NCBI RefSeq assembly: GCF_964204645.1
Contig: NC_134027.1
Location: 11,520,485-11,584,484 of the forward strand
Direction of reading: 5' to 3'
Length of the DNA stretch: 64,000 bases
Source: Tubulanus polymorphus
Lineage: Eukaryota > Nemertea > Palaeonemertea > Tubulaniformes > Tubulanidae
A program made the translations under genes and the position numbers. The first letter of the stretch is position 1, and each line of letters begins with the position of its first letter. Below the pieces are notes generated by a model. The model saw only the letters and a list, made by a program, of their open reading frames with translations, was not told where the DNA came from and made no database searches. Shown piece by piece: positions 18,714-24,700 of the stretch.

Positions 18714-21700
18714 ATGGCGTCGTTAACATCGCTTCAGACACTTTCAAGGGTAACCTGTCACTTTTATGTCAAATACTCGAAGCCATTTGATCAGCAACGA
18801 ATTTGCAATGAAGTTCACGATTTAGAATGACATGGTTTTTCTTTTAGGCTGTCACTAGAGCGTTGAATACGCGGCATTTTAGCGGATCCTCTTCATTTTC
18901 AGCTCAACAAGTAAGTTACTTCCGCGTTTAGCGCCACCTACGAGTAAGCTACATACGCCACGGTACTGGGCTGCCCTTTGGCCGGGCCTTGTTTCAGCAT
19001 AGATTGGGAACGTATTCAATCCATGGGTGTATTTCAAACTTGTCGGTCATTTCTAAGGGCTCTGTCTAGTAGAGGTTAAGGTTTTAATTGATGACGATTT
19101 CCAGTTGACGGTGTCACACTGCAGCAAAAAAAGAAAGAAGTATATAAACTTGAAAAAGGGGTGGACCATTAGGCTAACTTATAACTCTCAAAATCTAACA
19201 TGTTAGGATACCCTACCACAGTTCTAGATTTCTTGACAATTCTGATTTGAAGATTCAAAGACATTGAAAATATTACTCTTAAATCCTTGTAACTCCTCAA
19301 GTTTTGGGATGGTATTTAAACAAATTCTTTTCACATCAATGAAAATGTATTCGGTCATTGGTGCCAGGGCTAATCAGCAAGCGATTTAACCAGCCGGTCA
19401 TGAAACTGAACAACAGACTAACTACGGTAACCCCTATAGCCCAATTTCAGGGTTCAAAGCGGTCATGGATTTCTTGGAAAGTCATGGATTCAAAAATTGT
19501 CAAATCCAGGCCTGGAAAGTCATTGAATTGCCCCTAAATGTCCCTAGGTCATGGAAAGGTCATGGAATTGCATTTCCATAAACCCTGTGCATAGGATACA
19601 GAACCCTGACACATGTTTAAAGGCCTATATCCAACAACATGCATCATTGTGTATTCCAGACTGGGACCCACTTAATTGATGAATAATACATATCCTAAGC
19701 CCTGGGGACCTAAGTTACTATAAATTGCACTCTGAATGCATTGACCATTGAAGTATACCATTGAAGAGGTGTGTTAATTATGATGGCTCATTCCTCAATT
19801 CAATCTACTATTGTAAAGGCTTGCAGTCTAAATAATGTTAGTCTTGATAATTGCTTGAATTGTAATGAAATTGGTAATTAGCAGTTAAATTAGTAGCGTT
19901 TCAGTGTTCAGACTCTACTTATGCCTACCTATAACATATATAACTGTGATTAATTTCTAAATGACATAAACTGGGTCTGTTAGAACAATGCATTTCACAT
20001 GGTTAATTTATTAAATATTTCATTCAAAATTGTTTCCTAATTATTAATCTTACAATAGCTCTGAAACTAAATAATAGGCCTAGCAAAACTGGGCCTTTCA
20101 TTAGATATGTATTGCATCTGCATGAGGAAACATCCATCAGAGTTCAGTCCTTAAAGAAATATTCAGTATGCCCGGAAAGTGTAGATTTAAAGATTCCTGG
20201 CTTAATCATGAGGATTATAGTCCTTGGATAGGAAAAACAAAATCAGAATATGAAGCCAGATGTATGAAATGTCTTCGGAACTTCAGCATCGCAAATATGG
20301 GAGAGGCTGCTTTGAAAAGTCACATTAAAAGTAAACTCCATGTGTCATCGATGACCTTGGCTAATTCAACAAGAGGTATTCCTAACATGTTTTCGAGTAA
20401 TACAACAAGCAGTATTTTGACAGCAAGTAATCGTCAAACATCAAGGTAAGTTAATCATTAATATACAGAATTGTTAATATTTTACAATTGAATTTATTAC
20501 AACTATGTTAGTTATTACAATTATTATTTTTATTTTGCAGGCCAATAATGGACTCATATATTGCAAAAGATACTGTCCTGAAATCCGAGATAATTTATGC
20601 TTTGAATATGATAAACAATCACCACAGTTACAATTCCTGTTCTGGAATGAATGACATACTTAAGGCATGCTTTCCAGACAGTCAAATAGCCGAGATGTTT
20701 TCACTTAGTCAACAGAAAGCAGCATATCTAGTTCGTTTTGGTATTATGCCACATGTAAAGGATCTAATGAGACGGAAAATCAAAGACCAACAATACGTGT
20801 TACTATTCGACGAATCATTGAATCAGCGTACGCAAACTAAACAGTTGGATGTGTTAATTAGGTTCTGGGACCATGATGTAGTAAGGTCTTCGTATTACGG
20901 TTCAGACTTCATTGGATGAGCGACTGCAGACGATATGCTGCATTCATTTATGGACACATTTGGAGATCTCAATTACTCCAATCTTTATCAACTGTCCATG
21001 GATGGTCCAAATGTGAATTGGAAATTTTACGAATTGTTGCAACAAGAAATTTCAAGTATGTGTAATACTCGAAAGTCTATTCTGAACATAGGCAGCTGTG
21101 GCTTACATGTCATGCATAATGCCTTCAAAGCCGGCGACCATGCTACTGACTGGGATTTGGAGTCACTTCTTATCAACCTGCGTTATTTGTTCAAAGATGC
21201 TCCTGTCAGAAGAGAAATGTTTACTGAGGTCACTGGTAGTCAGAAGTTTCCATATAAATTTTGCTCTACTAGGTAAGTGAATTGGATTTTAGTTGTTATT
21301 AAAATACATGTACTTAATTAGGCAATCCAAATTACCCTGGTTATCAATTATTGTTTTATCTCCTTGCCGTATGTTAGCAGTTAAACTCAACATTTCTATT
21401 TTTGTTTTAGATGGCTGGATAACCTGCCAGCTGCAGAACGTGCGATTGAACTATGGCCGTATATCATAAAATTCGTGGAGCACGTTCAAACTTTGAAAAA
21501 GGCTAACATACCGACATCGAAACCATATTTATACATAAAAGACTTAGCGTCATCTGATATGGTATTGCCGAGACTGCATGCGTATGTATCTATTGCAAAA
21601 ACAGTTACACCGTTCTTAACCATCTACCAGACGGACAGGCCAATGCTGCCATTTTTGGCGGAAGACATACATAATGTTCTCCGATTACTGATGAAGCGAT

Positions 21701-24700
21701 TCATCAAAAGTGATATAATTCGGGAAGCAGATACTCTCACTAAGTTGATCAAGATAGATACAAAAAAGGAATCGAATTATTGCGTTCATTCTAAAATCGA
21801 CATCGGATTTATCGCGGAGGCAAAAGTTAAGGAACTTATTGCAGTTGGAAAAGCAAGTCAGCGCCAGTTTCTCGATCTGAGAATGAACACTCGAAAATTT
21901 CTTATCAGTTTAGTGGATAAAATAATAGCCAAAGCGCCGATCCAATATTCTTTGGTTAGAAATATGGTATGTTTAAATCCGAACGAGCTTGCCGCTAATT
22001 GTGACCAAAGTCGCGCTCAGTTCAAGAGAATGAGTTTAGGTTTATGTAAATAAAAGATTAATCATTTGTCTGCACCATGAAGTATATGAGTATATAATTA
22101 TGAAATAAAATTAATATTCTAACAAATTAATAATTTGTCTTTTTAACGTTTGTTCTTTTATAGTTAAGTTTGTCGTTTCATGGTCATTCCTCGGGGTTTC
22201 AGATATGAAATTAGGGTTGGAGAGGTCATTGAATTGGGATTGAAAAGGTCATGGGAAGTCATTGAATCAGATAGGTCTTGGAAGCTTTGAACCCTGCAAT
22301 TTAAACTTCATCAGAAGGGACTACGTGTAGTGTATAAAATAAATGAGGTTTTCACATCAACTTGAATTTGACTGTGTAATTTCTCTTGCTCTTTTCTGAA
22401 TACTTTACAGCTCAAAATTTATATTTCTACATGGTTTACAACCCAATTGATTACCTATGTGGCATAATTATGCTACATTTACTTTACCAATACATTTAAT
22501 TCAAAGGAATTTACTTAGAAAATGGGTCCTCAATATGTTATAGTAAGATGTTAGGGTTAGATTTGAGGGTTGAATTGAAGTTAAAACTTGTGGTCTAGTG
22601 GTAGAACAATTGTCAGATTAACCTATCAGAATGAGCCATATTGCTATATTCATTGGTAAAACATCCACTTCCTATTTCAGGCTATTTTATTGGCTCTCGG
22701 ACGTCCGTTAGACCCTTATTCTCGTACTATTTGTCTGTGTGTCTGTCTTTCACTTATTAATAGTGGGTTGATCTTGATGAAACTTGGGTACGATGTTAGT
22801 ATGGGGGCCCAGTGAACCACCTAGTGGCAGAACTAGGCAATAAAAACTGTTTTTCAGCGACATGACCTTGAAGATGACCTCGTAACTGAGGAACGAGGTT
22901 GTTATTCAAAAAGTTCTCTTGACAAAATTTAGCTGTCGTCTTCGCCCTAGATACAACATATATCCAAAATGCTATGAGAACTAACACATGGTAATTTCTG
23001 AGTTCAAGCCTGAGCTATCTATATTTCATTGTTGTAATATTGTTGACTTTATTGTAGTTAAATGTTCGAGATGCGCTAAATCAAGCAATTGATGAAGAAT
23101 TGAAGCGGGACGACAGAGTGTTTCTGTTAGGCGAAGAAGTTGCGCAATACGACGGCGCTTACAAGGTATAAGTCGCGTTACCGGTTTAGATTATCTTATG
23201 TTTTCATGATGATCGAAATAAGCGAGCGATCGACTTTGGAAAATCTTTTTTCAGGTTAGCAGAGGTTTATGGCAGAAATATGGAGACAAAAGAATCATCG
23301 ATACTCCTATCACTGAGGTAGGCATCGGCTTTGAAATAACCGGTAAAAGTTTTTATTTTTTTTCGAAATTTTCAGAATTTCAGGTGTTTATTTTTAATTT
23401 TTCAGATGGGATTCGCAGGTATTGCAGTTGGGGCTGCCTTCGTAAGTATAAAAAACACATCAGATGCAAACTTCTGACTACGAAAAAATTGTATGAATAT
23501 TTGCTGTAAATTATGTTTGATTCGTAGGCTGGTTTACGACCGATCTGTGAATTCATGACATTCAATTTCTCCATGCAAGCTATCGATCAGGTAACTCTCT
23601 TGAAAAGTGCCACGTCTTCCGAATTGAGTGTAAATTTTGATGTTAAGTTGTGTTGCTATTTTTCTATCAAATCAGGTGATAAACTCGGCAGCAAAATCTC
23701 ACTACATGTCCGCCGGAAAGGTTAGTAGCTGAGAAGCAATAGATTCATAGTACTCCCAAGTAATTACAAAAAGGCTTAAATAGAATTATCGTCCCCCACA
23801 ATATGTATTTGGTTAACTAGAAATGTTAGAACAATAATTGGGTGTTGGCCTGTTATGTGTCCTACGAGGACCTGGCACGCCAGCTAGGCATGCGGTATAG
23901 TTATTCCACCGGGCTTCCACAGAAATTTCAGGTAATTAGAATTTGAGCCCATTTTCGATTTAAGAAAAGGCCGGACGCAAGATTTTCACAAGACTTTCCA
24001 CATTTTCGGGATTCATAGATTTTATTTGTTTATCCATCAAATTTCAGAATATTTTAGCAAGATGTTTTAACTAATTGTATTTGCCGTACCCGTAAGAAAT
24101 TAAATCCAGCGTTCGTCTCAAAAGTAGTGTTACCCGGTCCAACAACAACCCAAAACGGGTGTAGACTTTCTCTACAGCAGTCGTATAATGTATGTCCATT
24201 TCAAATTCCTAGGTGGCGGTACCCATCGTATTTCGGGGACCTAACGGGGCAGCTGCGGGAGTAGCCGCTCAACATTCTCAGTGTTTCGCTGCCTGGTACG
24301 GTCATTGTCCCGGTCTGAAAGTCGTTTCGCCTTATTCATCAGAGGATGCGAAGGGTCTGTTGAAATCGGCAGTTAGAGATGATAACCCAGGTACGTCACA
24401 GTGAATAGTAACTACATTTCTAAAGGGAGTGTTCAGCGCTCGTGTTCGGGCTATTTTGTGGAAGTTACGCTAGACTTGGCCTTATTTGGGACTGTTCAAG
24501 TCAATTTGGTAATCGGCTTGATTCAGTAAATTTTGCTCAAAAGTATTTCAAATACATGAAGATTAGAGTAAAAATTCACTGAATTGAGCAGTGCTGAATA
24601 ATTTGGGAAAAAATCCCATTTCTCAACTCGGTGTCCAGTCAATCTGGTGTCAATTTCACTGAGTAGGACGTAGTCTATTGTAGGATGATATTTGATAAGG

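What the first reader, a model, noticed from the sequence alone, without database searches (positions are those of the whole stretch)
19442..22302. Complete 2.85-kb DNA transposon with 6-bp target duplication inside PDHB
Perfect 13-bp inverted termini, CAATTT on both sides, repeated subterminal GGTCATGG words, and a three-exon transposase-like gene with a single stop codon. CAGGG ends suggest hAT, but 6 bp instead of 8 points to an uncommon lineage. Near intactness implies recent activity.
Basis: seen in the sequence. Interest (0 to 1): 0.6.

Follow-up and report, generated by a model that had tools for sequence, protein, structure and literature searches.

The report
Internally deleted hAT6-type DNA transposon copy
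The 2.85-kb insertion is a real, young cut-and-paste transposon with a 6-bp target duplication, but it is a broken copy that has lost 750 bp of a 3.6-kb element belonging to an already named group (hAT6), so it is mostly ordinary; the surprise is that close relatives in the same genome duplicate 5 bp instead of 6.

Summary
The element spans 19448-22296, with 13-bp perfect inverted ends (CAGGGTTCAAAGC) between CAATTT repeats, and a three-exon transposase gene with one TGA. The word 'complete' does not hold. Five sister copies in the same genome (99.3-99.7% identical) show that a full-length copy is about 3.6 kb. The window copy alone lacks 750 bp, which removes the last ~238 codons, including the catalytic glutamate motif (SVERGFS) and dimer region. 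The TGA is a private CGA-to-TGA change.

The conserved DDE/C-x2-H/RW motifs and a Foldseek match of a 26%-identical relative to Hermes place it in hAT. A 6-bp hAT group, hAT6, was named in 2007, so this is a new member of a known kind.

Beyond the finding: related families in this genome (~45% aa identity) split sharply into 6-bp and 5-bp duplicators. The transposase tree rejects, weakly, a single 5-bp clade. Every family examined has its own subterminal word, in the same orientation at both ends. Whether the element lies inside PDHB is unresolved.

The parts
19442..19447 (.). left target-site duplication CAATTT
   Evidence: sequence; 6 bp also in three sister copies
19448..22296 (+). hAT6-type DNA transposon, internally deleted copy (2849 bp of ~3.6 kb)
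19448..19460 (+). left terminal inverted repeat CAGGGTTCAAAGC
19461..19566 (+). left subterminal array of five [AG]GTCAT[GT]G words
   Evidence: element positions 14, 33, 71, 100, 111; 0 of 5000 shuffles of both ends together
20168..20445 (+). transposase exon 1 (N-terminal zinc-finger-like region)
   Evidence: zf-BED weak, E 0.078, below cut-off
20541..21272 (+). transposase exon 2: first two catalytic Asp (codons 20809, 21001) and C-x2-H motif (21097)
20917..20919 (+). premature TGA, CGA in all five sister copies
21411..22050 (+). truncated transposase exon 3 (446 codons in an undisrupted sister exon, about 208 kept here)
22031..22034 (+). junction of the private 750-bp internal deletion
22224..22264 (+). 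right subterminal array of three [AG]GTCAT[GT]G words, same orientation as the left array
   Evidence: element positions 2777, 2800, 2810
22284..22296 (-). right terminal inverted repeat
22297..22302 (.). right target-site duplication CAATTT

Best explanation
A young, internally deleted and therefore non-autonomous copy of a hAT6-type cut-and-paste transposon. The intact family (about 3.6 kb) encodes a transposase of about 780 residues. Its N-terminal zinc finger probably binds the subterminal GGTCATGG words (inferred), and its DDE RNase H-like core cuts at the CAGGG ends and joins them to target strands 6 bp apart, which yields the 6-bp duplication (inferred from the hAT mechanism; the 6 bp is shown). 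The window copy keeps both ends, so it could be mobilised in trans, but cannot make its own transposase: it lacks the region with the catalytic Glu and dimer interface, and carries a TGA.
For: Four two-ended copies with four different 6-bp duplications. Six copies 0.35-0.66% apart. A private 750-bp deletion junction found nowhere else in the genome. Conserved [19 protein letters not shown] and SVERGFS motifs across relatives. The full-length 811-codon single-exon relative L069 (26% identical) gives a model whose top eight Foldseek matches are all Hermes transposase (E 8.8e-6 to 1.1e-3); its RNase H-like part aligns to Hermes 174-266, with its first Asp (D175) at Hermes D180 by the range offset. 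Near-identical copies of that relative also make 6-bp duplications. Weak Dimer_Tnp_hAT match in L069 at the right place (E 0.016, below cut-off).
Against: The family's own transposase matches no Pfam family. Model confidence is low overall (pLDDT 57.7), the fold was tested on a distant relative, and in the VIA re-alignment Hermes ranks among many other RNase H-like folds (Z 7.5). No expression or mobility data.
Confidence: 0.92

Rival explanations
1. A complete autonomous 2.85-kb element disabled only by one stop codon.
For: Both ends and the duplication are perfect, and most of the reading frame is open.
Against: All five sister copies hold the extra 750 bp, which in the copies with an undisrupted exon 3 codes for about 238 more residues with the catalytic Glu motif.
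Confidence: 0.03
2. A member of another superfamily with about 6-bp duplications (IS3EU or Dada), not hAT.
For: 6-bp duplication; no Pfam hAT hit for the family itself.
Against: Ends are CAGGG, whereas IS3EU ends are TAYGG..CCRTA (PMC12730594); hAT-type motif set; Hermes is the best fold match of the relative.
Confidence: 0.04
3. A copy domesticated as a regulatory element of PDHB or of the neighbouring SLC25A3-like gene.
For: It sits between the putative first SLC25A3-like exon (minus strand, start codon at 18110) and the first conserved PDHB exon (about 23058).
Against: Copy is young (0.35-0.62% from its sisters); nothing indicates selection or function.
Confidence: 0.02

Closest known systems
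hAT6 group (Kapitonov and Jurka 2007, Repbase Reports, cited in PMC12730594)
   Same: hAT-type transposon with 6-bp target duplications
   Different: Cannot be compared by sequence here (Repbase not held); the window copy is an internal-deletion derivative
hAT5 group (Kapitonov and Jurka 2007; PMC9004415)
   Same: Relatives in this genome (L062-L065) share the CAGGGTTC ends and about 45% transposase identity but make 5-bp duplications
   Different: The window family makes 6 bp
Hermes transposase (PDB 2bw3, 4d1q, 8edg, 8sjd)
   Same: Top Foldseek matches of relative L069; RNase H-like core aligned
   Different: Hermes belongs to the 8-bp hATs (established knowledge); about 13% identity in the Foldseek alignment, so only distantly related
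IS3EU
   Same: 6-bp duplications
   Different: TAYGG ends and TIRs over 30 bp (PMC12730594)

Membership tests
hAT superfamily | short TIRs with CA..TG ends (2.5-5 kb element, TIR 10-25 bp) | tested here: met
   13-bp TIR CAGGGTTCAAAGC, 2.85 kb here and about 3.6 kb in sisters; size and TIR range from PMC3942097
hAT superfamily | DDE catalytic triad with C-x2-H and RW motifs | tested here: met
   [27 protein letters not shown] conserved in relatives; the window copy itself lacks the Glu region
hAT superfamily | RNase H-like fold interrupted by a helical insertion, like Hermes | tested here: met
   relative L069: strands 170-209 and 236-269, then helices; top 8 Foldseek hits are Hermes; low-confidence model
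hAT superfamily | Dimer_Tnp_hAT C-terminal domain (PF05699) | tested here: inconclusive
   none in the family; E 0.016, below cut-off, in L069
hAT superfamily | 8-bp target duplication | tested here: not met
   6 bp in 4 of 4 copies; but hAT5, hAT6 and hAT7 are accepted exceptions (PMC12730594), so this is not a required feature of the superfamily
hAT6 group | 6-bp target duplication | tested here: met
   CAATTT, GAATCC, TGATAG, TAGCCC
hAT6 group | transposase clusters with Repbase hAT6 proteins | not testable with these tools
   Repbase not available
IS3EU | TAYGG..CCRTA ends, TIR over 30 bp | tested here: not met
   ends are CAGGG, TIR 13 bp

The most novel reading that the evidence does not exclude
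In this hAT clade the target-duplication length switches between 5 and 6 bp among families whose transposases are still about 45% identical, so hAT5 and hAT6 would not be two separate clades. Each family also carries its own subterminal word, repeated in one and the same orientation at both ends, suggesting a transposase-DNA code that turns over quickly and two ends recognised asymmetrically.
Probability: 0.5. Interest if true: 0.42.

Novelty: new member of a known kind. Interest (0 to 1): 0.25.

Why it matters
The insertion itself is a routine young hAT-type copy. The set of related families in this one genome is more useful: closely related transposases with different staggers (5 or 6 bp) would let one map which residues set the distance between the two strand-transfer sites, and matched sets of subterminal words and zinc fingers would let one test how end recognition evolves.

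Tried and rejected
Pfam search of the transposase exons, single and joined: no hAT family. PDB sequence search with profiles A1 and A3: nothing relevant. Fold of exon 3 alone (model): pLDDT 59.5, too weak to use, not searched. Looking for the PDHB first exon by signal-peptide and splice heuristics: no convincing candidate. Looking for 5' partners of 3'-end relatives L013-L023 within the fetched loci: none found. TSDs of L061 and L067: ends not found. The VIA list is dominated by long coiled coils and generic RNase H-like folds, so only the Foldseek order was used for the hAT match. L057 and L058 have no left end and were left out of the duplication count.

Full report
Observation. The element runs from 19448 to 22296 (2849 bp). 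Its 13-bp ends CAGGGTTCAAAGC and GCTTTGAACCCTG are perfect inverted repeats, bounded by CAATTT at 19442-19447 and 22297-22302. The words [AG]GTCAT[GT]G occur five times in the left 150 bp and three times in the right 150 bp; none of 5000 shuffles reaches this, and the best shuffle had 2. The gene reads as three exons (20168-20445, 20541-21272, 21411-22050) in one frame with a TGA at 20917.

Other copies. The window is G000:C3:11520485-11584484. Searches with the 5' end, 3' end and exon 3 found five sister copies, which were fetched. Three have both ends and are 3599, 3561 and 3578 bp (L054, L055, L056); two lack the left part (L057, L058). Their duplications are GAATCC, TGATAG and TAGCCC. Pairwise differences among the six are 0.35-0.66%, which supports recent activity.

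The window copy is a deletion derivative. It alone lacks 750 bp after 22032. A search with 231 bp across the junction matches the five others only as two separate blocks, 1-82 (1-96 in one copy) and 85-231. The junction carries two bases of filler and no long microhomology. In L058, exon 3 encodes 446 residues; the window keeps about 208. The lost part includes LLLLSHGQASVERGFSVNKQIE, the motif that holds the catalytic glutamate in hAT transposases (established knowledge of the family), and the C-terminal region. The TGA is CGA in all five sisters, so it is a private C-to-T change. Every sister is also damaged in at least one way (stop codon, frameshift or missing left end), so no intact copy was seen in this assembly.

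What it is. Across relatives the transposase conserves [20 protein letters not shown] and SVERGFS, the order expected of the hAT D-D-E core. No Pfam family matches the family's own protein. A distant single-exon relative in the same genome (L069, 811-codon open frame, 26% identical over exon 3) gave a weak Dimer_Tnp_hAT match (E 0.016, below cut-off). Its model, low in confidence overall (pLDDT 57.7), has the RNase H strand order followed by a helical insertion, and its eight best Foldseek matches in the PDB are all Hermes hAT transposase, E 8.8e-6 to 1.1e-3. The RNase H-like part, 169-271, aligns to Hermes 174-266; by that range offset its first aspartate, D175, sits at Hermes D180. VIA ranks Hermes (Z 7.5) among many other RNase H-like folds, so the fold alone would not be proof. 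Together with the CAGGG ends, hAT membership is well supported. hAT elements usually duplicate 8 bp, but groups with 5 bp (hAT5) and 6 bp (hAT6) were named by Kapitonov and Jurka in 2007 (PMC12730594).

Mechanism. Shown: the ends, the 6-bp stagger, the family's recent spread, and loss of the C-terminal transposase in this copy. Inferred from hAT biology: the N-terminal zinc finger binds the subterminal words; the transposase cuts at the CAGGG ends and joins them to target strands 6 bp apart; the window copy could move only with transposase supplied by another copy. Internally deleted two-ended copies of 0.7-2.6 kb are common in the related families B, C2 and D, so mobilisation in trans is plausible in this genome.

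Related families. Ends of 40 further insertions were read. Family D (L068, L070): 12 of 12 at 6 bp (two share one flank). Family B (L059, L060, L066): 10 exact 6-bp, one 6-bp with a mismatch, two at 5 bp (one in a T-rich site); two share one flank. Family C2 (L063-L065): 19 at 5 bp, one in a run of T that cannot be scored, three without a clear duplication. L062 (C1): 5 bp. In the transposase tree, B (6 bp) is sister to C2 (5 bp) while L062 (5 bp) lies outside that pair; holding the 5-bp rows together costs 11.6 log units (AU p 0.034), and at least two changes are needed. Support for the key branches is 84-85%, long branches are present, and the test was made after the tree was seen, so this is suggestive only.

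Subterminal words. The window family uses TCATGGAA, B uses GCAGTGAA, L062 uses GCCTGAAA, C2 uses CCTTGAA and D uses GTCCTATTT. In each of the families examined, the right-end copies lie in the same orientation as the left-end copies, with at most one reverse copy, although the TIRs are inverted. A paper search for this arrangement in hAT elements found no description; most subscription papers and Repbase are not in that library.

Setting. PDHB is on the plus strand; its first recognisable coding exon begins at about 23058. An SLC25A3-like gene lies on the minus strand, with a putative first exon starting at 18110 (assignment by recall of the family). The element lies between them. No PDHB leader exon could be identified, so intron 1 and the region between the two divergent genes are both open.

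Verdict. A real, young, internally deleted member of an already named kind; interest low to moderate, with the related-family pattern the more interesting part.

Noticed in passing
L062-L065 and 16 further insertions against L059/L060/L066, L068/L070 and 17 further insertions: Target-duplication length is family-specific, 5 bp or 6 bp, among transposases about 45% identical; tree suggests more than one switch.
   Followed up: partly
both ends of the window element and of L060, L062, L065, L068, L070: Each family has its own subterminal word, repeated in the same orientation at both ends although the TIRs are inverted.
   Followed up: partly
L013-L023: A larger related family sharing about 80% of the last 72 bp with the window element; 5' ends not in the fetched stretches; L017 and L018 are near-identical with the same flank.
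   Followed up: partly
L057, L058: Two sister copies lack the left 410-1007 bp, so they have no left end.
   Followed up: no
G000:C9:7260812 and C17:7852; G000:C8:4100387 and C8:2773945: Pairs of insertions with identical flanks, suggesting duplicated segments or redundant assembly.
   Followed up: no
window 14400-18110 (minus) and about 23058-26910 (plus): SLC25A3-like phosphate carrier gene and PDHB gene lie head to head, two mitochondrial genes that may share a promoter region.
   Followed up: no
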